NCBI GenBank assembly: GCA_020725805.1
Contig: DYEF01000046.1
Coordinates: forward strand, 1 to 64,000
Reading direction: 5' to 3'
Source of the DNA: Bdellovibrio sp.
Lineage (GTDB): Bacteria; Myxococcota; SpSt-1050
DNA: 64,000 nucleotides
This document shows, piece after piece, positions 45,390 through 56,099 of this stretch. Position numbers and translations under genes: made by a program. The notes beneath the pieces were generated by a model. The model made no database searches. It was not told the origin of the DNA and was given only the letters and a program-made list of their open reading frames with translations. Numbering within the stretch: position 1 is the stretch's first letter; each line of letters opens with the position of its first letter.

Positions 45390-46445
45390 ATGAAAGAGTC
45401 CAACGTACCCGGATTGATAGATTTAAGAGCAGTAAACAGAATGCTCCGACGATATAATGCCGGTCTTTTAAAAAGATATCTCGGACGAACGGTCTGTGAC
45501 AGCGTCAGGATTGATGCGGATGTGCTGAACAAGGGGATATTTACTCCGCTCTCAGACTTTCTCGGCCGCGGGGGAAAGAGGTGGAGGGTCTCTCTTTTCG
45601 ATACTGTTCTTAAGATAACAGGCGGCAGTAAGGAGAGATACAGGAAATATTCTGTCATAACCGAACTTATTCACAACGGGACTCTTATGGCAGACGATAT
45701 AGAGGATAACTCCCCGATGAGGAGAGGGCTTCCCGCACTTCATTTGATATACGGTACTGATATAGTCCTCAACCTCTCTCAGTTTCTGTATTTCTTCCCG
45801 CTCATTGAACTTCCGGAGCTTAAAGACAAGGACCTCAGGTCGAAACTGATGAACATCTATATAGAGGAGATGATAAAGCTCGCATCCGGACAGGCTGTTG
45901 ATATTGTCTGGCACAAAGGACTGTATGATATAGGGAAAATAACAGTCAGGGACTACCTCACTATGTGCTCGATGAAGACCGGATCTCTTGCAAGGATGTC
46001 GGTAAGGATGGCTTGTGCATTTGCCGGCACTGACAGGTCAAAGGAACGTTCTCTGGCCGGTTTCGCCACTGCGCTCGGAATCGCTTTTCAGATAAGGGAT
46101 GATATCCTCGACATTACGGAATCCGGTCTTTCGGCGAAGAAGGGTGGTACAGGTAATGATATTACCGAGGGGAAGATAACGCTTGTGGTTCTGAGAACGT
46201 TGAAAGTGGCAGACCGCTCTGACAGGAAAAGACTCCTTGGCATTCTTATGGCTCATACGAGGGACCGCAGAAAGATCATAAAGGCTCTGGATATTATTCA
46301 GCGATATGACGGTATCAGCTTCTCGCTTGAGACTGCCAGATCTGTTCTAAAAAGGTCTTTTTGTGGCCTCAAAAGAGAGTTTTCCGAAAATAAGGTAAAA
46401 AAACTGAGGGAGTTTGCTGATTTCTGTCTGAACAGAGACGTATAA
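45390..46445 (+). CDS. Polyprenyl diphosphate synthase, divergent second copy
   Basis: The 351-residue enzyme shows GGKRWR, LMADDIEDNSPMRRGLPA (first Asp-rich motif) and FQIRDDILDI (second), so the chemistry is intact. The insertion between them and the 40-residue longer chain set it apart from the copy in the recA operon. It is the only plus-strand gene of this block and converges on the UbiA gene. A geranylgeranyl or farnesylgeranyl product for that prenyltransferase is an attractive but untested idea. Confidence 0.88.
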   Translation: MKESNVPGLIDLRAVNRMLRRYNAGLLKRYLGRTVCDSVRIDADVLNKGIFTPLSDFLGRGGKRWRVSLFDTVLKITGGSKERYRKYSVITELIHNGTLMADDIEDNSPMRRGLPALHLIYGTDIVLNLSQFLYFFPLIELPELKDKDLRSKLMNIYIEEMIKLASGQAVDIVWHKGLYDIGKITVRDYLTMCSMKTGSLARMSVRMACAFAGTDRSKERSLAGFATALGIAFQIRDDILDITESGLSAKKGGTGNDITEGKITLVVLRTLKVADRSDRKRLLGILMAHTRDRRKIIKALDIIQRYDGISFSLETARSVLKRSFCGLKREFSENKVKKLREFADFCLNRDV

Positions 46446-46472: not shown

Positions 46473-47399
46473 CTAAAAGATATACGAGAGCATAAATCCT
46501 ATCTGTAAAGTAAACATAAGATAGTACATATGGTGCCAGCTGGGATGATTTTCTGTAAGTTTTTCGAACGGGTCCTTGTCTATCATTCTGACGACGAAAT
46601 GTCCCCAGACGGTACAGATGACTCCGAGGGAAACGAGCAGATACCTGTTGCCGGTGAAATAGCCTGATAATGTGAGAAGAATAATCAGCAGGAAGGGGAG
46701 TGTATAGAAGGGGTAGATAATCTTTACGGTCAGGTCCTTTCCGTACATGACCGGGAGGGTGTTGCAGCCGTTCGATTTATCCCCTTTTATATCTGCAAAG
46801 TCCTTGCTGTTTGTGGCGCCGAAGAGAAAGAGACCGAATATCAGTCCTATGAACCACGCCTCGGGGAGCAGGATAGACTTCGTGACAGACCATCCGGCGA
46901 CCTTCAGAAGGATGCCCCGCGGTATTGCGATTGTCAGATTCGCAACCCATCCGTTCTTCTTGAATCTGAAAGGAGGTGCGCTGTAGAGGATTGTGGCAAC
47001 CGCTGCCGCAAGAAACATCAGAAAGCATCCGGTGTTGATAAGCAGGGTTGAAAATACAGAGACAATATATAGTATCAGGGAGAATAATTTTGCCTCTTTT
47101 ATGCTCATATCTCCTCTGACCAGGACGCGTCCGGGCTTGTTGATACGGTCGATTTCGATATCATATATCTGATTGAGTACGTTCGATGCCGCATTCAGAA
47201 GGGATGCCATAACAGATGCTAAAGCGATTTTGATTATCCACAGTTCGGTTGTTTCCGAGTTGTGGGTAAATTTCGGACTTGCCCCGTAGGCAGTAATGGC
47301 TCCGCTTATTATCCCGAGGGCAGGGGCAATGAGGGTAAAGGGACGCATAATTTCTACGTATATTCCAACCGGACTTTTTGAAGTCTTTCTATCTGTCAT
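46473..47399 (-). CDS. UbiA family prenyltransferase
   Basis: The 308-residue protein has about nine membrane helices and both Asp-rich motifs: NVLNQIYDIEIDRINKPGR and DFADIKGDKSNGCNTLP. UbiA enzymes move a polyprenyl group onto an aromatic or glycerol-phosphate acceptor. The acceptor here is unknown; menaquinone, heme, archaeal-type lipid and secondary-metabolite enzymes share the fold. Its start overlaps the end of the radical SAM gene at 47389 by 11 bases, which joins it to an operon of two cobalamin-type radical SAM proteins. Confidence 0.9.
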   Translation of the reverse strand: MTDRKTSKSPVGIYVEIMRPFTLIAPALGIISGAITAYGASPKFTHNSETTELWIIKIALASVMASLLNAASNVLNQIYDIEIDRINKPGRVLVRGDMSIKEAKLFSLILYIVSVFSTLLINTGCFLMFLAAAVATILYSAPPFRFKKNGWVANLTIAIPRGILLKVAGWSVTKSILLPEAWFIGLIFGLFLFGATNSKDFADIKGDKSNGCNTLPVMYGKDLTVKIIYPFYTLPFLLIILLTLSGYFTGNRYLLVSLGVICTVWGHFVVRMIDKDPFEKLTENHPSWHHMYYLMFTLQIGFMLSYIF

Positions 47400-48915
47400 A
47401 CCATTTTGGCTTGTAGAGGAGGTGGTAGTTCTTCGGGTCGAGCGGATTGAGTCTCATGTAGAGATTTCTAAGACCTACCTTTGAAGCCACAAGGAGCCAC
47501 CAGATATACATATTTCTCTTGTATCTGTATTTTGAGGTAAGCCCTTTTACTATCCAGTCAAGCTGCAGGTATTCGGATGTTATTTCAGCCGTTATGTCGA
47601 GTATCTCCTCTCTTGTAAGATACTCTGAATCCATAACGGGTGTACTCCAGTCGAATTCGTCGAAGGATATCTCTTTTAGCCAGCCGTTGGTAATAGCCTC
47701 GTCGTACATAACTGTCCCGGGCACAGGTGTCAGAGGATGGAATGCCGGAAAGTCGAGTCCGAGCCCCTTTGCATATTCTCCGAGTTTTTTCAGAGACTCC
47801 CGGCTCTCTTTTCGGTGCCCCACAATGAAAGTGCCCTGCAGGAAGACCTGAGGGTATTTCCGTCTGAAAATACTGATTACCTCTTCGGTCACGGACGGTT
47901 TGTAGAATTTCTTGTTGAAAGAGTCCAGTACGTCCTTTTCGACCCGCTCAATCCCGATACATATATGGACGAGACCGGACCTTACCATCTTCTCGAGTAT
48001 CCCGTTTTTCTCGTCCCTCAGAAGGCAGTCCGCGCGCATAAAGGCAAACCACCAGACGGGGAGATTCTTTTTAAGAAGGAGTCCGGCGAATCTCTCATTC
48101 CATTCAGGGAGCAGATTGAACGAATCATCTACGAAGATCATCATTCTTTTGTTGTGAACCCTGTAGAGGTATTCTATCTCTTCGACCGTATATTCCGGAC
48201 TTTTGGTCCTGAACCGGGGAATCAGCTTTATCTTCCCGTTTTCGATTCTGCGCTCGGCGTTATTGACCCAGAAGGCACAGAACGAGCATTTTCCTGTGCA
48301 GCCCCTCGAGTGATGGATTGTGGTCCCGCCGGGGGAGAAGAGATAGTCGGACTTTCCGTAGAGATGCATCGGAAGCATATCGTATGCGGGCAGAGGGAGT
48401 GAATCCAGATTCTCAATAAGAGGTCTGGGCTCCGTCATAATAATTCCGGAATCCCGTCTGAAGGCAATCCCCTTTACCTTCTCCACGTCGCCGGGTTTGT
48501 CTCTCAGATAACTGACAAGTTCCAGAAGAGTCTCTTCCCCCTCGCCAATAACAATATAATCGACGACATTTGAGGAGAGGGTCCACTCAACGGTATTTGC
48601 AAAATGGGTCCCGCCGGTAATCGTGATGATATCTTTATCTATTCCCTTTGCGAGTTTGAGTACCCTGAGTGCCTCGGATGCATACATCGAGTGATTCTCC
48701 CCGACTGCAACAATGTCGGGCCGGTAGTCTATTATCTCTTTTGCAAGGGATTTATAGCCGATATGGAGCGGAAGGCAGTCGAGTATTTTCGTCTCAATCC
48801 CCGCTCTTCTGAGATAAGCCGCAAGGCAGATTAGGTTCTGCGGGACGAGATAATTATCCTGCTCGTGAATAAAAGGCCAGAAGGCCCTCGGGCCATGTAT
48901 GAACATTACCTTCAT
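47389..48915 (-). CDS. B12-binding-domain radical SAM protein (paralog 1)
   Basis: The 508-residue protein has an N-terminal cobalamin-type Rossmann domain (about 1-140; VIGEGEETLLELVSYL) and the radical SAM motif C206-TGK-C210-SF-C213. The DxHxxG cobalamin motif is absent, as is usual in this class. A DUF4080-like C-terminal part ends with the helical WIVKGLTSKYRYKRN region. Members methylate or rearrange unactivated carbons in lipids and secondary metabolites. It overlaps paralog 2 by 4 bases and UbiA by 11, so the three form an operon. Confidence 0.88.
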   Translation of the reverse strand: MKVMFIHGPRAFWPFIHEQDNYLVPQNLICLAAYLRRAGIETKILDCLPLHIGYKSLAKEIIDYRPDIVAVGENHSMYASEALRVLKLAKGIDKDIITITGGTHFANTVEWTLSSNVVDYIVIGEGEETLLELVSYLRDKPGDVEKVKGIAFRRDSGIIMTEPRPLIENLDSLPLPAYDMLPMHLYGKSDYLFSPGGTTIHHSRGCTGKCSFCAFWVNNAERRIENGKIKLIPRFRTKSPEYTVEEIEYLYRVHNKRMMIFVDDSFNLLPEWNERFAGLLLKKNLPVWWFAFMRADCLLRDEKNGILEKMVRSGLVHICIGIERVEKDVLDSFNKKFYKPSVTEEVISIFRRKYPQVFLQGTFIVGHRKESRESLKKLGEYAKGLGLDFPAFHPLTPVPGTVMYDEAITNGWLKEISFDEFDWSTPVMDSEYLTREEILDITAEITSEYLQLDWIVKGLTSKYRYKRNMYIWWLLVASKVGLRNLYMRLNPLDPKNYHLLYKPKWYDR

Positions 48916-50318
48916 TTCAGCATCGCATAGATTCCGTAAAGCAGATTTTTCGGAGTAATGGTCCTGATGACGAAGAGGTGTCTGAAGACCATTTTGAGCC
49001 TCAGATAAAATCTCCTTGTTGCTATTTTCTGAAGATACAATAGTCTCTCGGCGGAGATTCTGTCCGTTGCCAGTGCCATCTTTGAGGGGTCGGGGTTGAA
49101 GGTTGTGAAATTCTCCCAGTCCTTTCTGTTCAGTTTTCCGCCCGATGAGAGCATATCGTATAACTGAGAGCCCGGAAAAGGGACGGTTACTGCAAACTTT
49201 GCAAAATCCACATCCGAATCGATAGCAAATCTGATAGTCTCTTCTATCTCCTCTTCCGACTCGTCCGGGAGTCCTATCATAAAGAGTCCGACAATATGAA
49301 TCTTCTCCTCGTGCGCTGTCCGGATTATTTCTCTGGTAAGCTGGAGGTCGAGCCTCTTGTTTATGGAGTTGAGAACCCTCTGACTACCGGATTCTATTCC
49401 GAAGAGCAGTCTTCTGGCGCCGGCACGGTACATCAGGTTCAGAAGTTTTTTATTGAGTCTGTCGGGCCGTGTCTCTGATATCCATACGACCTTTTTATTT
49501 ATCCCCCTTCTGATTAGTTCCTCGCAGAAGAGGGTTGTATGTTCTTCCTCGAACGGAAATATCGGGTCGATAAAACCGACCTGCCTTACATTGAATCTTT
49601 TATGCAGATATTCGAATTCATCTGCGATCGATTCCGGTGACCGCTTTCTGTAGATCTTTCCCATATAGTCAAGGGAACAGTATGTGCATCTGTACGGACA
49701 TCCCCTCGAGCCGGAGACTGAGAGCGTAGGTTTTGCGATATCGGCAAAGGGGAGCATTCCGTATGATTTATAGGGAAAGAGTTCCCACGACGGAAACGGA
49801 AACGAGTCCAGATTTCTCGGAGGTTCCCTGTCGCCGGTATTAACTGTAGTACTTCCTTCCCTGAAAGCAATCCCCTTTATCTCCCTCAGAGGTTTTTTGC
49901 CTGTTATTGCGCTGATTATCTCAACAATGCTCTCTTCCGCCTCGCCGTGTGCAATTATATCGGCAAGTCCGCTTCCGAGAAAATCCTCATAAAAGAGACT
50001 TGCGTGGATTCCTCCGAGAATAATTTTTGTGTCTTTATTCTGTTCCCTGATTATTTTGCACATATTTTCGACAACGGGTGCCGACGGTGTGAGAGTGGTA
50101 ATGCCGACGATGTCGGGCTGAAAAAGAAGAAGTCTCTTTTTCAGGTCGTCATACGAGAGTTCCTGCCCGAAATAATCCATTACCTCGACTTCAAGTCCCT
50201 CTCTTTTCAGGATAGAGGCAATGTAGGCAAGTCCTATACAGGGCATTGCCTGCAGGAGTTTGGAAAATCTTCCAAATCTGTCCTTGACTATTGGCGGATT
50301 GATCAGTAGGGCGCGCAC
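48912..50318 (-). CDS. B12-binding-domain radical SAM protein (paralog 2)
   Basis: The 468-residue protein starts at a GTG whose first base is the last base of a preceding 16-codon frame (see 50318-50368). The Rossmann part spans about 1-140 and the cluster motif is C207-PYR-C211-TY-C214. The C-terminal half is closely related to that of the protein at 54720: both read GLFMIGLP(D/N)E and DFAKFA(V/I)TVP(F/L)PGS, and both finish with an FYLR block. The substrate is unknown. It is the first long gene of the operon leading to UbiA. Confidence 0.88.
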   Translation of the reverse strand: MRALLINPPIVKDRFGRFSKLLQAMPCIGLAYIASILKREGLEVEVMDYFGQELSYDDLKKRLLLFQPDIVGITTLTPSAPVVENMCKIIREQNKDTKIILGGIHASLFYEDFLGSGLADIIAHGEAEESIVEIISAITGKKPLREIKGIAFREGSTTVNTGDREPPRNLDSFPFPSWELFPYKSYGMLPFADIAKPTLSVSGSRGCPYRCTYCSLDYMGKIYRKRSPESIADEFEYLHKRFNVRQVGFIDPIFPFEEEHTTLFCEELIRRGINKKVVWISETRPDRLNKKLLNLMYRAGARRLLFGIESGSQRVLNSINKRLDLQLTREIIRTAHEEKIHIVGLFMIGLPDESEEEIEETIRFAIDSDVDFAKFAVTVPFPGSQLYDMLSSGGKLNRKDWENFTTFNPDPSKMALATDRISAERLLYLQKIATRRFYLRLKMVFRHLFVIRTITPKNLLYGIYAMLK

Positions 50319-50368
50319 TATTTCTTCGGTCTGATTCCTTTGGGTCTTGGATTCGGTCTCCAGTTCAT
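50318..50368 (-). CDS. Candidate 16-residue basic, Pro-rich microprotein
   Basis: An ATG at 50368 preceded by a near-perfect ribosome site (GGAGGTG, five bases away) opens a frame of 16 codons: MNWRPNPRPKGIRPKK. Its TAG stop shares one base with the GTG start of the radical SAM gene, so translation of the two is likely coupled. A strong promoter lies just upstream. The peptide has seven Arg/Lys, no acidic residue and four Pro. It may be a regulatory leader, a partner peptide or a peptide substrate; nothing in the sequence decides between these. The radical SAM GTG has no good site of its own, which supports real translation of this frame. Confidence 0.5.
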   Translation of the reverse strand: MNWRPNPRPKGIRPKK

Positions 50369-50394
50369 TAAAACACCTCCGATTAACAAATTGT

Positions 50395-50423
50395 TATATA
50401 CCAGTTGCAAATAATATTGTCAA
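50395..50423 (-). promoter_or_regulatory. Strong sigma70-type promoter for the microprotein-radical SAM-UbiA operon
   Basis: On the minus strand TTGACA (50423-50418) is perfect, the spacer is 17 bases and the -10 is TATATA (50400-50395). The spacer contains ATTATTTGCAA, which is also half of the palindrome upstream of recA. Confidence 0.55.
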
Positions 50424-50470
50424 TTTTTGTTACTATGACTTGAGGCATTTTTGCCATAAAAAACAAAGTT

Positions 50471-51877
50471 TTATCGCAGGATCTTTCTGAACTGGTTTGC
50501 AACAAGGTGAATACCGAATCTGACCAGAGTGGAAAGGTCTACTTTATAGAAGAGGTTTCTGATGCGCGAAGGTCTGAGATAGAATCTGATGTATCCGAGT
50601 GTCTGGAAGTATTCGAGTCTTGCACGCGGGACGGAGTCCAGTTCGAGGGTATTGCCTACGATTCTTCCGGTAGCCTCATACGATTCGCTTTTCAGTCTGA
50701 GTCCTCCGATTCCTCTCTTTGCCCACTCATATACCTCGGTGCTCGGAAACGGTGCAAGGATTGCGAGATTTATGAAATCCGGGTCTGTTTTCATTATAAA
50801 GTCAATTGTCTGTTTTATGGTCTCCTCGTTTTCGTACGGCAGACCGAGAATGAAATTTGTATCTACCTTTATTCCGGCCTCCTTCGTCCATCTGATCGCC
50901 TGTTCGGTCTGTTCGAGTGTAAATCCCTTTCTGATTCCGTCCAGTATCCTCTGGTTTCCGCATTCGGCACCGTATACAATCGAAAATACGTTTGCCTCTT
51001 TCATTGCCCTGAGCATCTCCTTGTTTACCCTGTCTATTCGTGTGGAGGCAATATATCTTACTTTGTTGAGACCCCTTTTGGCTATCTCGCTGAAAAGGCT
51101 GATTGTGTATTCGGGTTCGATTGTAAGAGTATCGTCTGCAAAGAATATCTGAGTGGCTTTGTACTCCCTTATGTCCCTTTCTATCTCGTCTGCCACCGAC
51201 TGAAAGGACCTCGTTCTGACATTGTGGCCCATAGGCTGGTAACAGAAGACGCATCTGTTTGGACACCCCCTTGCGGTAATTACAGGGATTTCAATACCTC
51301 TGAAATAGTGTGGTTTGTATTTTTCAAACGGGAAGCCTGTAAAATCCGGCATCGGGAATTTGTCTATCTCTGTCTCCAGCTCTCTGGGAGGATTTACACT
51401 GATTTCGTCTCCGGTTCTGTATGCAAGACCTTTGACCTTCTCCAATTCCGCATTGTTTTTCAGCGAGTTTATCAGTTCCAGAAGTGTATATTCACCTTCT
51501 CCGAACACAACGAAGTCAATGGATTTGTATCTCCTGAGTGTGTCTTCGGGGAGTGCGCTGGGGTGAGAGCCTCCGACAACCACTTTGATATTCTTGTTTA
51601 TTTCCTTGATTCTGTCGGCGAGATAGGCTCCGTCGTCCATCTCGGATGTGCAGTGGATATTTATTCCTGCAATATCAGGAGAAAATTCGTTTATTACATC
51701 CCTGAGAGCGCTTAATGGTTTTCTGTATGCACGGGCGTCGAATATCCTGCTCCCTATACCGCTGTTCTTCATAAATGCGTGCAGGTATGCAATCCCCAGC
51801 GGCGGACCCTTCTGGTTCATTCCGAGTTCCTTGTCGATTCCGAAAGTGTGATATGGCACAATAAAGAGTATTTTCAT
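50471..51877 (-). CDS. B12-binding-domain radical SAM protein (paralog 3)
   Basis: From the ATG at 51877 (AAAGGT eight bases before it) the protein has 468 residues; the frame is open eleven codons further to a TTG inside the promoter region. The Rossmann part (about 1-140; FVVFGEGEYTLLELINSL) is followed by C205-PNR-C209-VF-C212, with a YQP sequence after it. The last 40 residues contain FYLRPSRIRNLFYKV, the same C-terminal FYLRP block seen in paralogs 4, 5 and 7. It is transcribed separately from paralog 2 and divergently from the DUF4388-like gene. Confidence 0.88.
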   Translation of the reverse strand: MKILFIVPYHTFGIDKELGMNQKGPPLGIAYLHAFMKNSGIGSRIFDARAYRKPLSALRDVINEFSPDIAGINIHCTSEMDDGAYLADRIKEINKNIKVVVGGSHPSALPEDTLRRYKSIDFVVFGEGEYTLLELINSLKNNAELEKVKGLAYRTGDEISVNPPRELETEIDKFPMPDFTGFPFEKYKPHYFRGIEIPVITARGCPNRCVFCYQPMGHNVRTRSFQSVADEIERDIREYKATQIFFADDTLTIEPEYTISLFSEIAKRGLNKVRYIASTRIDRVNKEMLRAMKEANVFSIVYGAECGNQRILDGIRKGFTLEQTEQAIRWTKEAGIKVDTNFILGLPYENEETIKQTIDFIMKTDPDFINLAILAPFPSTEVYEWAKRGIGGLRLKSESYEATGRIVGNTLELDSVPRARLEYFQTLGYIRFYLRPSRIRNLFYKVDLSTLVRFGIHLVANQFRKILR

Positions 51878-52048
51878 ACAATACCTTTGCTTTTCATAAT
51901 ATAATGTCAAACACAGACAAAAACAACATTAAATATTGAATAACATATCCTAAATTCAAATCACAGGAGTGGCAGCTTTTCTTTGTTATAACTGAGAATG
52001 CGGATGTCCGGTACCTGTGCCGAAGTCAATCCCGACGATAGAATTTGC

Positions 52049-52077
52049 TTTACACAAAGTGGTTTGCCATATATCAT
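52049..52077 (+). promoter_or_regulatory. Sigma70-type promoter for the DUF4388-like gene
   Basis: TTTACA (52049-52054) and TATCAT (52072-52077) are 17 bases apart, each with five of six consensus matches, and lie just upstream of a strong AAGGAGG ribosome site. Confidence 0.5.
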
Positions 52078-52106
52078 TTTGCTATTCTGATTAAGGAGGT
52101 TTTGCC

Positions 52107-53162
52107 GTGCCAAATCCGGAGTTTGTCAATCAGGAAGAACTCTTGAATTCCATTCTGCACATAAGCCCCCGTGTCAACTGGGATACACTGAGACTCAACG
52201 AAATCGAGGCATTCATTCTCTCGCGTGCAACAGGTGTTCTGACGATAAAGGAAATCATTGAGCAGACGAGTATCGATGTCAGGCAGGCTGTCTCGATAAT
52301 CAATGACTATCTTGCAAAAGGAATTCTTCTGATTGAGAAGAAGCAGCAGATGGGCAGTGCCGACTTTTCACTCTCCGGGCTCAAGAGGGCGGAGCAGAAG
52401 GTTACACTGAAGAAGGTGCAGGAAATCAAGTCTTTCGAGAACTTCGAGATAAAATTTCCGTTCGGAGAGATTTCGGAGTATCATTTTCCCAAGATTCTTT
52501 TATACGCCGTTTATTCGAAACTGACCGGGAAGATAGAGGTCGAGAGCGGACAGAAGATGAGAATCATAGGATTCGACAACGGAATGGTCTGTGAGGTCAG
52601 AAGTATTCCGATTATCCTCGAGGAGTGTCTCGGAAGAATAATGCTTACGAGGGGAGAGATAACATACGAACAGTATCAGGAGAGTCTGAAACTTATGGCA
52701 AGGTCCCACAAGCGGCAGGGCGAGATTCTCGTGCAGATGAAGGCTGCCACAGAAAAGGGTATCGAGAATGCCTTAAGACTTCAGTCCGAGATAAAGATTA
52801 CAGACCTTTTTGGCTGGGAGACCGGCGAATACAGGATAAAGCCGGGTGTAAAAATCAACAGGGCGTTTACCGGCGGGATTGACCTTGTTGCGGTGGTATT
52901 TTCGGGTGTGAAGGAGAAGAGTTCACTCGAAAGAATCAGAAAAGAGATCAAGAGTGTGCAGCTTCTGGGTTATGAGTTTTCGAATGCCACGCTCTGTGAA
53001 CACCTGAAAAAGATTGTCAAGGGTCCGGATGCCGGTGTCATCGCTCAGGTCGAAAAGAACAAGAGCGGTCAGGTCAACGACCTTCTGTCAGATAAATCGG
53101 CAGGGGCATATATGATGGTTTATATCTGCCTTCTTCTGGGAATAATCAGAATAAAGAGATAG
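52107..53162 (+). CDS. DUF4388-like protein
   Basis: The 351-residue protein starts at a GTG with AAGGAGG eight bases before it. An N-terminal helical part (1-80; VLTIKEIIEQTSIDVRQAVSIINDYLAKGIL) resembles a winged helix. The middle (about 110-260) is a DUF4388/PATAN-type domain related to the one at 35620 (KIEVESGQKMRIIGFDNGMVCEVRS, then LFGWETGEYRIKPG). A hydrophobic end (MMVYICLLLGII) could anchor the C-terminus. The domain occurs with signalling and motility proteins; the specific role is unknown. It is followed closely by the membrane/propeller gene. Confidence 0.75.
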   Translation: MPNPEFVNQEELLNSILHISPRVNWDTLRLNEIEAFILSRATGVLTIKEIIEQTSIDVRQAVSIINDYLAKGILLIEKKQQMGSADFSLSGLKRAEQKVTLKKVQEIKSFENFEIKFPFGEISEYHFPKILLYAVYSKLTGKIEVESGQKMRIIGFDNGMVCEVRSIPIILEECLGRIMLTRGEITYEQYQESLKLMARSHKRQGEILVQMKAATEKGIENALRLQSEIKITDLFGWETGEYRIKPGVKINRAFTGGIDLVAVVFSGVKEKSSLERIRKEIKSVQLLGYEFSNATLCEHLKKIVKGPDAGVIAQVEKNKSGQVNDLLSDKSAGAYMMVYICLLLGIIRIKR

Positions 53163-53168
53163 ATACTG

Positions 53169-54650
53169 ATGTCCGACAGAAAAAAGACCATTCTGATAAT
53201 TGCAGCAGCAGTTGTCCTTCTGCCTCTCTTTCTCAAGATCGCAGACTTTACGAGATTTGTGGTTTTTACCACCCGTATTCACGAACTCTTTGCCGGAATT
53301 CTGAAATATCTCCTGAAAAATTATCTGATTCCTGTTCTGGTCATACTTGTTTCTGCAGTAAGTATTGCTGCCTGTCTTGTTTACAAAATATCGAAACGTA
53401 GATTATACAGGGATTTCTGGTTTATGTCCGGACTTCTCATATTTCTCTTCCAGATCTTTCCTCTGGCACTGCTTAAATCCGTAAAACCCGAATTGCTATA
53501 TGTTTATCTGGTCTGTTTCGTATGTCTCTTTATCTTTCTTCTTTTGAGAAGCGTCCCGTTTGATTTTTTAAGGTCGTTTTCATTTTCGGTAATCTTTCTC
53601 TTCCCGGTCTTTGCACTCTTTTTAATGATCGGTTTTAATGCAAGTGCGGCAAGACCCCAAAAGACGATATTAAACGGGGGTCCCGGGCACAACCTTCTGG
53701 ATGAGAGGTGCGACAGAAAGAGATTGCTCTCGCAGAAGGAGATAAAACCTGTCTGGCTTGAGGATGCCTGGTTATACGGAGGTGTTGCAACAAGGGACGG
53801 AAGGTTTATCTACTTTTCCGACAACGGATACGGGATTGTGGGTTTTGAAATCCGGGAGGACGGCACCTATGAAAAACTGCCTTTTGTGAGATATCCCGAA
53901 GGTTTTAATGCAGCCCTTTACAGCCACAGGCTCTATCTCACACCGGATGAAAAATATCTGTATTATTACGGGGCAAGGAGTGCGGAGTTCGTATTCATAG
54001 ACAGGGAAAAACTCGAAGTCTCCTATGTCATTCCTACAAAAAACGGACTGGACGGATTCTCTGCCGCTATGGATACAAAGAGAAATCTTATTTACGGATT
54101 CCCCTTTATCGGCAAAGAAGTCCCTGTACTTTCCTATGAGAACGGCGTTCCGAGACTGATAAAGTGGATTGATTTCTCGCAGATATCGGGGTGGCTTATT
54201 CAGGGGGTATATGATGAAAAAAGGGATTATTTTATTATCTCAACCAGCCAGTGGCTTGTGGTTTATAACGCGTCTTCAATGGGTCTATTAAAATATTTAT
54301 CCTTGGGCCCTATGGCCAATAGATTATTTATGATAGATAAAGATAACCTGCTTTTAACATATTATCACTCCGGATATTTTCAGGTTATCGATTTAAATAC
54401 ATTTAGTTTAAGCACAACTGATGCGCCAAAGGGAAAAACAGAAGCAGGATATGATAAAACAAACAATATATTAATGTTTGCCGATCTGGTATTTCCTTAT
54501 TTATATATTTATAGCCGCGATAAATTCCTTTGGAAATCTTTATATACGGGTCCGAAGACAAGAGGGGTTGTACAGACAGGTAAACTTGTCTTTGTTTCCT
54601 CCGCCTGCGGTATAGTTAGATTGGAACTGAAGGATGTTTTTGCAGACTAA
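53169..54650 (+). CDS. Membrane protein with C-terminal beta-propeller domain (copy A)
   Basis: The 493-residue protein has four or five membrane helices in the first 160 residues and a large exported domain with propeller-like repeats (VATRDGRFIYFSDNGYGIVGFEI; LTPDEKYLYYYGARSAEFVFIDR) ending in GPKTRGVVQTGKLVFVSSACGIVRLEL. The protein at 59684 has the same layout and a similar end (GPRPRG to VVSGCGVFEI), so the two are paralogs on opposite strands. Codon usage changes abruptly near base 54280: the last 120 codons are AT-rich (many TTA, ATA, AAA). No function is known. It begins six bases after the DUF4388-like gene. Confidence 0.7.
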   Translation: MSDRKKTILIIAAAVVLLPLFLKIADFTRFVVFTTRIHELFAGILKYLLKNYLIPVLVILVSAVSIAACLVYKISKRRLYRDFWFMSGLLIFLFQIFPLALLKSVKPELLYVYLVCFVCLFIFLLLRSVPFDFLRSFSFSVIFLFPVFALFLMIGFNASAARPQKTILNGGPGHNLLDERCDRKRLLSQKEIKPVWLEDAWLYGGVATRDGRFIYFSDNGYGIVGFEIREDGTYEKLPFVRYPEGFNAALYSHRLYLTPDEKYLYYYGARSAEFVFIDREKLEVSYVIPTKNGLDGFSAAMDTKRNLIYGFPFIGKEVPVLSYENGVPRLIKWIDFSQISGWLIQGVYDEKRDYFIISTSQWLVVYNASSMGLLKYLSLGPMANRLFMIDKDNLLLTYYHSGYFQVIDLNTFSLSTTDAPKGKTEAGYDKTNNILMFADLVFPYLYIYSRDKFLWKSLYTGPKTRGVVQTGKLVFVSSACGIVRLELKDVFAD

Positions 54651-54719
54651 TTTGTCAATCATTAACGGAATTTTATTAATGTTCATTTTGCAATATCGGG
54701 ATGTTTGGAACTAACAATT

Positions 54720-56099
54720 TCAGTTGTTTTTAAAGAGTAGTGAAAAAAGAACCTTTTTTATCTGCCTTGGTCTGAGGTAAAACTTTAAATGGGCCAGAAA
54801 CAAATTCCTGACGAGTTCTTTACTGCTCTGAAATCTGTTAATATTAACAAGTCCGTCCGGATGTGTAGTGAAAGTAAGATAATTGTTCCAGTCGGGTCGT
54901 TTGAGTCTTCCGCTTTTGTAATATTCATCGAAGAGAGGAGAGCCTGGCAACGGAACCGTGATCGCAAACTTTGCAAAGTCAAGATTGAGTTCGCAGGCAT
55001 ATTTTATGGTTTTCACAGTGTCCTCTTTTGTCTCATTAGGCAATCCGATCATAAAAAGCCCCGCTGCTTCTATGCCCTCGTCTTTGATAATCCTGCATGC
55101 CTCCTTGCCCTTATTCACAGACGTGTTTTTATTGATATCGTTTAGTAATTTGTCTACTCCTGATTCAAAACCAAGGTATATTCTTGCACATCCGGCTTTT
55201 TTTACCAGTCTTATCAGGTCTTTTTCAACATAATCTGTTCTCATTCCGCAGACCCATTTTATTTTTTTATGAATGTTACGGCTTATGAATTTTTCCAGTA
55301 GTTCTATAGTGTATTTCTTGTTTATTCCGAAGTTTGGCTCCAGAAACCATATATGGTCTATTCCAAAGTCTTTTATGAGATATTCAATTTCTTCAATAAT
55401 GTTTTCTGGCGATCTGTAACGAGGTATTCGTGCGTATTTGTCAAAGGAACAGAAGCTGCATTTATAGGGGCAGCCTCTGGCATTGAACATCGGCACGCCT
55501 CTTGCGCCCAGTTTCACAAGGGCATTCATATCGTATTTTAATGGATTAATCAGAGACCAGTCCGTAAATGGAAGTGCGTCGAGGTCCATTGGCGGAATTC
55601 CTCTCCGAGTACTTATACACTTCCCCTTTTCGAAATATGAAATGGAAAAAAGGGATGCCGGGTTTGATTTGCTTCCGGTTATGTCGATTAATCTAATTAT
55701 TGTCTCTTCACCTTCTCCGTGTACAACATAGTCACATAGTCCTTCACATATCCATTTTTCAGCCATAAAGCTCGAATGAAGGTTTCCGGTAATAATTATT
55801 GTATTTTTAGATACCTGCCTCGTTCCGATACATATTTGTTCTGCGATCCGGGCGGCTGGGGTCAAGACGCCGATTGCCAGAAAATCTGGTTGTCTTTTTT
55901 TTATTATTTGAATTACCTGATTTACGTTTAATTTCTGATATTCCATATCTATTAACTCAACATTGTGCCCCTTATTCTTTACAGCAGAAGCAACATGCAA
56001 AAGGCTTATTGGGTGAAAAGGTTTATAAAAGTATTTAAAAATACCGTATTTTTCTATATCTATTGACGGGTTGATAAAAAGAAAATTACAGCCTGCCAT
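54720..56099 (-). CDS. B12-binding-domain radical SAM protein (paralog 4)
   Basis: The 459-residue protein has a Rossmann part (about 1-140; VVHGEGEETIIRLIDI), the motif C210-PYK-C214-SF-C217 and a C-terminal part very close to paralog 2 (GLFMIGLPNE, DFAKFAITVPLPGS, KFYLRPRQI). Its codon usage is clearly more AT-rich than that of paralogs 1-3, in line with the composition break at 54280. The stop lies 69 bases from the convergent propeller gene, and the start is three bases after paralog 5. Confidence 0.87.
   Translation of the reverse strand: MAGCNFLFINPSIDIEKYGIFKYFYKPFHPISLLHVASAVKNKGHNVELIDMEYQKLNVNQVIQIIKKRQPDFLAIGVLTPAARIAEQICIGTRQVSKNTIIITGNLHSSFMAEKWICEGLCDYVVHGEGEETIIRLIDITGSKSNPASLFSISYFEKGKCISTRRGIPPMDLDALPFTDWSLINPLKYDMNALVKLGARGVPMFNARGCPYKCSFCSFDKYARIPRYRSPENIIEEIEYLIKDFGIDHIWFLEPNFGINKKYTIELLEKFISRNIHKKIKWVCGMRTDYVEKDLIRLVKKAGCARIYLGFESGVDKLLNDINKNTSVNKGKEACRIIKDEGIEAAGLFMIGLPNETKEDTVKTIKYACELNLDFAKFAITVPLPGSPLFDEYYKSGRLKRPDWNNYLTFTTHPDGLVNINRFQSSKELVRNLFLAHLKFYLRPRQIKKVLFSLLFKNN

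What the first reader, a model, noticed from the sequence alone, without database searches (positions are those of the whole stretch)
50318..50423. Hidden 16-residue microprotein fused by overlap to a radical SAM gene
A perfect TTGACA promoter, a GGAGGTG site, and a 16-codon frame (MNWRPNPRPKGIRPKK) whose stop shares a base with the radical SAM start form a complete expression unit. The radical SAM start has no ribosome site of its own. The peptide is strongly basic and Pro-rich, with no acidic residue.
Basis: seen in the sequence. Interest (0 to 1): 0.65.

Follow-up and report, generated by a model that had tools for sequence, protein, structure and literature searches.

The report
Conserved 16-residue bacterial micro-gene
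A 16-amino-acid, proline-rich and strongly basic mini-protein gene in front of a radical SAM gene looks real, because nearly the same peptide is encoded again elsewhere in this genome and in a sister species, at the end of the type IV pilus tip operon; its function is unknown and it does not depend on the radical SAM gene.

Summary
The anatomy is confirmed on the minus strand: TTGACA, GGAGGTG, and a 16-codon frame whose TAG shares one base with the GTG start of a B12-binding radical SAM gene. Chance is excluded by two further copies: a paralogue (MNWRPNPRPKGIKPKK) elsewhere in the genome and an identical peptide in the only congener held, both with their own ribosome-binding site. Against the congener the finding's copy shows 7 silent and 0 replacement changes (P about 2e-5); against the paralogue 6 silent and one Arg/Lys. 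Both other copies are the last cistron of a minor-pilin/PilY1 operon, followed by a terminator-like hairpin, with no adjacent radical SAM gene. The order-level relative keeps the radical SAM gene (49%) and PilY1 without the peptide. So the microprotein is supported; a conserved partnership with radical SAM is not. Most likely it is a genus-restricted, trans-acting cationic microprotein whose ancestral home is the pilus operon; here a second copy acts as first cistron, coupling radical SAM translation by stop/start overlap. Its molecular function is inferred only. Silent codons of the pilus-linked copies are also unusually conserved, unexplained.

The parts
50418..50423 (-). -35-like box TTGACA
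   Evidence: read directly; consensus only, no transcription data
50395..50400 (-). -10-like box TATATA, 17-nt spacer (4 of 6 to consensus)
   Evidence: read directly; not listed by the stricter scan
50374..50380 (-). Shine-Dalgarno GGAGGTG, GGAGG ending 7 nt before the ATG
   Evidence: both other copies also carry GGAGG before the ATG
50318..50368 (-). 16-codon microprotein gene MNWRPNPRPKGIRPKK, stop TAG
   Evidence: paralogue in own genome and orthologue in congener, mostly silent substitutions
50318..50318 (-). single base shared by the microprotein stop (TAG) and the radical SAM start (GTG)
48912..50318 (-). B12-binding radical SAM protein, BchE/HpnJ-like, GTG start
   Evidence: Pfam PF04055 and PF02310; NCBIfam best BchE, below cut-off; gapless alignment with the G002 orthologue from residue 1

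Best explanation
It is a genuine 16-codon gene of a small microprotein family so far seen in one genus. The likely ancestral copy is the last cistron of the type IV pilus minor-pilin operon (four pilin-like genes, then PilY1, then the microprotein, then a terminator-like hairpin). In this genome a second copy sits behind its own promoter-like sequence as first cistron before a B12 radical SAM gene that lacks its own SD; the ribosome that ends the peptide probably reinitiates at the overlapping GTG (termination-reinitiation). Because peptide sequence, but not neighbourhood, is kept between copies, the peptide itself probably works in trans. Its composition (four Pro, three Arg, three Lys, one Trp, no acid) suggests an extended cationic peptide that binds an anionic partner such as RNA or an acidic protein surface. 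Shown: copies, conservation, SDs, overlap, operon context. Inferred: translation, reinitiation, direction of duplication, trans action, partner.
For: Second copy in the same genome after PilY1 and third in the congener in the same PilY1 position; minor-pilin operon order conserved in both. Substitutions: finding's copy vs congener 7 silent, 0 amino-acid changes (P about 2e-5); vs paralogue 6 silent, 1 Arg/Lys (P about 7e-4). DNA similarity of the finding's copy to the others stops at the start and stop codons, as expected if only the coding part is constrained. GGAGG precedes every copy. Synonymous sites are close to saturated between the two species (PilY1 fourfold-site divergence 0.70; ribosomal-protein and nusG-like genes similar), so the peptide's identity is not mere recency of the species split. 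1-nt overlaps are a known architecture for termination-reinitiation, and 15 nt of upstream gene can suffice (PMC10666635).
Against: Only three copies in two species. No convincing relative elsewhere among 195 genomes of the phylum and none in a relaxed exact-pattern scan of 84,980 species other than the congener, so the family is young, fast-diverging beyond the genus, or too short to find. No expression data. Molecular function is inferred from composition alone. The PilY1-linked copies are more conserved at silent sites than a peptide requirement explains.
Confidence: 0.7

Rival explanations
1. Leader peptide or attenuator: the peptide exists only to sense translation and regulate the gene downstream (radical SAM here).
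For: Short frame right before the gene with strong SD and overlapping start; the other two copies are followed by terminator-like hairpins.
Against: In the congener the terminator is followed by a convergent gene, so there is nothing to regulate; no terminator lies between the frame and radical SAM here; the order-level radical SAM orthologue has no such leader.
Confidence: 0.1
2. Precursor of a ribosomally made, modified peptide, matured by the adjacent B12 radical SAM enzyme or by an HxsC-like radical SAM enzyme encoded 2.3 kb from the paralogue.
For: Radical SAM genes lie near both copies in this genome; the HxsC-like enzyme has orthologues in the congener and in G002.
Against: The adjacent enzyme matches lipid/tetrapyrrole-type BchE and HpnJ best, all below curated cut-offs, and has no close orthologue in the congener (best 31%); no radical SAM gene among the ORFs within about 8 kb of the congener's copy; the HxsC-like gene lies on another contig there; 16 residues leave little room for leader plus core.
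Confidence: 0.06
3. The conserved object is mainly a DNA or RNA element (for example a regulatory RNA, binding site or recombining segment) that happens to be open.
For: PilY1-linked copies keep 11 of 13 degenerate codons against about 4.9 expected (P about 3e-4); none of 1283 PilY1 16-codon windows has as few differences.
Against: Over the three copies nearly all variable coding positions are silent third positions and the single other one is Arg/Lys; SD and a stop at the same place in all copies; no Rfam match; folding not better than shuffles.
Confidence: 0.1
4. Chance open frame with a chance SD before radical SAM.
For: None beyond the small size.
Against: Copies at two other loci with the same peptide.
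Confidence: 0.02

Closest known systems
Bacterial conserved intergenic microproteins (e.g. Fesenko et al., The Cryptic Bacterial Microproteome, PMC11188072; GMSC catalogue, PMC11364881)
   Same: Tiny unannotated frame under purifying selection, with conserved synteny (PilY1 operon) as support; the first catalogue covers 15-70 codons.
   Different: Those families are mainly hydrophobic; this one is hydrophilic, Pro/Arg/Lys-rich, and has a second copy in a new, probably translation-coupled context. I could not search the catalogues themselves.
Translation-coupled overlapping gene pairs (termination-reinitiation; PMC6728339, PMC10666635)
   Same: 1-nt stop/start overlap; downstream start without an evident SD.
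   Different: The upstream cistron is only 16 codons and its pairing with the downstream gene is not conserved.
Proline-rich antimicrobial peptides (PMC7736402)
   Same: 25% Pro, net charge about +5.5, one PRP motif, length similar to apidaecin.
   Different: Encoded in a bacterium without signal or pro-sequence; no evidence of antimicrobial, ribosome or DnaK activity; no homology shown.
Minor-pilin/PilY1 operon of type IV pili
   Same: Location of the two other copies at the operon's 3' end.
   Different: No 16-residue cistron after PilY1 in G002 or G008; one paper search found no report of such a cistron.

Membership tests
Conserved microprotein (protein-coding smORF) | Homologues with an excess of synonymous change | tested here: met
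   7 silent/0 replacement vs congener, 6/1 vs paralogue
Conserved microprotein (protein-coding smORF) | Start codon with ribosome-binding site kept in homologues | tested here: met
   GGAGG before ATG in all three
Conserved microprotein (protein-coding smORF) | Translation shown (Ribo-seq or mass spectrometry) | not testable with these tools
   no expression data available
Leader peptide / attenuator | Conserved position before a regulated gene | tested here: not met
   congener's copy ends the operon before a convergent gene; order-level radical SAM orthologue has no leader
RiPP precursor | Conserved neighbouring maturase | tested here: not met
   no radical SAM gene among ORFs near the congener's copy; HxsC-like orthologue on another contig
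Termination-reinitiation pair | Stop and start overlap by 1 or 4 nt, weak downstream SD | tested here: met
   TAGTG at 50320-50316 minus strand
Termination-reinitiation pair | Downstream translation depends on upstream translation | not testable with these tools
   needs a two-reporter assay
Proline-rich antimicrobial peptide | At least 25% Pro and net cationic (PMC7736402) | tested here: met
   4 of 16 Pro; charge about +5.5 at pH 7
Proline-rich antimicrobial peptide | Intracellular target (ribosome or DnaK) and antimicrobial action | not testable with these tools
   none; not filed as a member

The most novel reading that the evidence does not exclude
A bacterially encoded, PrAMP-like 16-mer that binds the producer's own ribosome or DnaK, made at the end of the pilus-tip operon and also used as a translated start cassette for another gene, with a sequence constrained both as peptide and as nucleic acid.
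Probability: 0.07. Interest if true: 0.75.

Novelty: new member of a known kind. Interest (0 to 1): 0.45.

Why it matters
Sixteen residues is near the lower limit for a gene whose protein-coding nature can be shown by comparison alone. A paralogue plus an orthologue make the case unusually clear, and tie an unannotated peptide to the tip operon of type IV pili. It also offers a testable example of a micro-gene acting as a translation start cassette for a gene without its own ribosome site.

Tried and rejected
N-terminal extension of the radical SAM protein or frameshift: rejected, different frame and the orthologue aligns from residue 1 without gaps. Known RNA element or riboswitch: no Rfam match in the window, the C80 contig or the congener's locus. 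Phage origin: relaxed pattern found nothing in viral contigs; plasmids were not searched. Distant homologues: profile search of 195 phylum genomes gave, besides the three copies, only weak matches (E 0.013-0.038 per genome, no more than 195 searches give by chance); the three loci were read and show G+C-rich frames without the start and peptide, judged chance. Literature: no paper of the library contains the peptide strings. High expression as cause of the silent-site conservation: ribosomal-protein and nusG-like genes are nearly as divergent at silent sites as PilY1. The ribosomal S12 control failed because it was not found in this assembly, so EF-Tu fragments and their neighbours were used; some frames compared are non-coding overlaps and were ignored.

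Full report
Anatomy. On the minus strand the sequence reads TTGACA (50423-50418), 17 nt, TATATA (50400-50395), GGAGGTG (50380-50374), ATG at 50368, sixteen codons, TAG (50320-50318), and the GTG of the radical SAM gene begins at 50318. The -35 box is perfect; the -10 box is 4 of 6 and the stricter consensus scan did not list it. The radical SAM protein has B12-binding and radical SAM domains and resembles BchE and HpnJ, far below their cut-offs. Its start is right: an orthologue of 49% identity in the order-level relative G002 aligns without gaps from residue 1. That orthologue has its own GGAG site and no 16-codon frame of this kind.

The test that decided it. A 251-base search of the own genome returned a second place, 87% identical over just the 16-codon frame. 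There, on contig C80, AAGGAGGTTAGTT ATG ... encodes MNWRPNPRPKGIKPKK, about 20 bp after a PilY1-like gene. The only held congener, G001, carries MNWRPNPRPKGIRPKK with its own SD, also just after PilY1. In the GTDB species scan this is JAOAFA010000010.1, Deltaproteobacteria MAG SKW273, the sole hit of a relaxed pattern in 84,980 species.

Coding evidence. Finding's copy vs congener: seven differences, all silent, plus TAG/TAA (P about 2e-5 against random placement). Versus the paralogue: six silent, one Arg/Lys (P about 7e-4). The two comparisons are not independent. Flanks of the finding's copy do not align with the others, and all three have GGAGG before ATG. A chance frame is excluded; a purely structural RNA is unlikely.

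Context. In both species the other copy ends an operon of pilin-like genes (N-terminal methylation motif found in the three tested) and PilY1, and is followed by a terminator-like hairpin. Downstream genes differ: co-directed in G000, convergent in G001. G002 and G008 have PilY1 homologues but no such frame after them. So the pilus operon is the shared home, and the radical SAM position is seen only in this genome.

How it most likely works. The peptide sequence is kept while the neighbourhood changes, so the peptide itself is probably the functional product, acting in trans (inference). In the finding's locus it probably also couples translation to the radical SAM gene: 1-nt overlaps are among the commonest arrangements for termination-reinitiation, and the last 15 nt of an upstream gene can suffice in E. 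coli (PMC10666635). What the peptide binds is unknown. Composition (pI 12, charge about +5.5, 25% Pro) points to an anionic partner. It meets the composition criteria for proline-rich antimicrobial peptides (PMC7736402), but this is resemblance, not membership.

Unexplained. Between the PilY1-linked copies 11 of 13 degenerate codons are identical, against 4.9 expected from codon usage if silent sites are saturated (P about 3e-4). PilY1 itself is 70% diverged at fourfold sites (48% in its last 50 codons), and no 16-codon window of it has as few differences. Ribosomal-protein and nusG-like genes are similarly diverged at silent sites. An overlapping nucleic-acid signal, codon requirement, or a recent exchange could explain this.

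Limits. Three sequences, two species, no expression data; scans used one genome per species, exact patterns or a 16-position profile; metagenome contigs and plasmids were not searched.

Noticed in passing
window 47389-56099 and onward on the same contig: Array of about 14 B12-binding radical SAM genes (BchE/HpnJ-like) on one 103-kb contig, beside a polyprenyl synthase (45390-46445) and a UbiA-type prenyltransferase (46473-47399); G002 contig C105 holds a similar array.
   Followed up: partly
L033:16432-18033 (own genome C80): HxsC-like radical SAM protein 2.3 kb from the second microprotein copy, on the opposite strand; orthologues in G001 (63%) and G002 (46%), in G001 on another contig than the microprotein.
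   Followed up: partly
L002:1501-1551 and the orthologous frame in L004 (minus strand, from 1532 down): Silent sites of the PilY1-linked microprotein copies are far more conserved than those of PilY1 or ribosomal-protein genes.
   Followed up: partly
L027:2896-3060: In G002 PilY1 is followed by a long imperfect inverted repeat (TTCGCGCAAAAATAAGTTCGCAT ... GTGAAGTTATTTTTGCGCGAGCC) instead of the microprotein.
   Followed up: no
window 52107-54650: DUF4388-domain protein followed by a 493-aa protein without Pfam match, on the strand opposite to the radical SAM genes.
   Followed up: no
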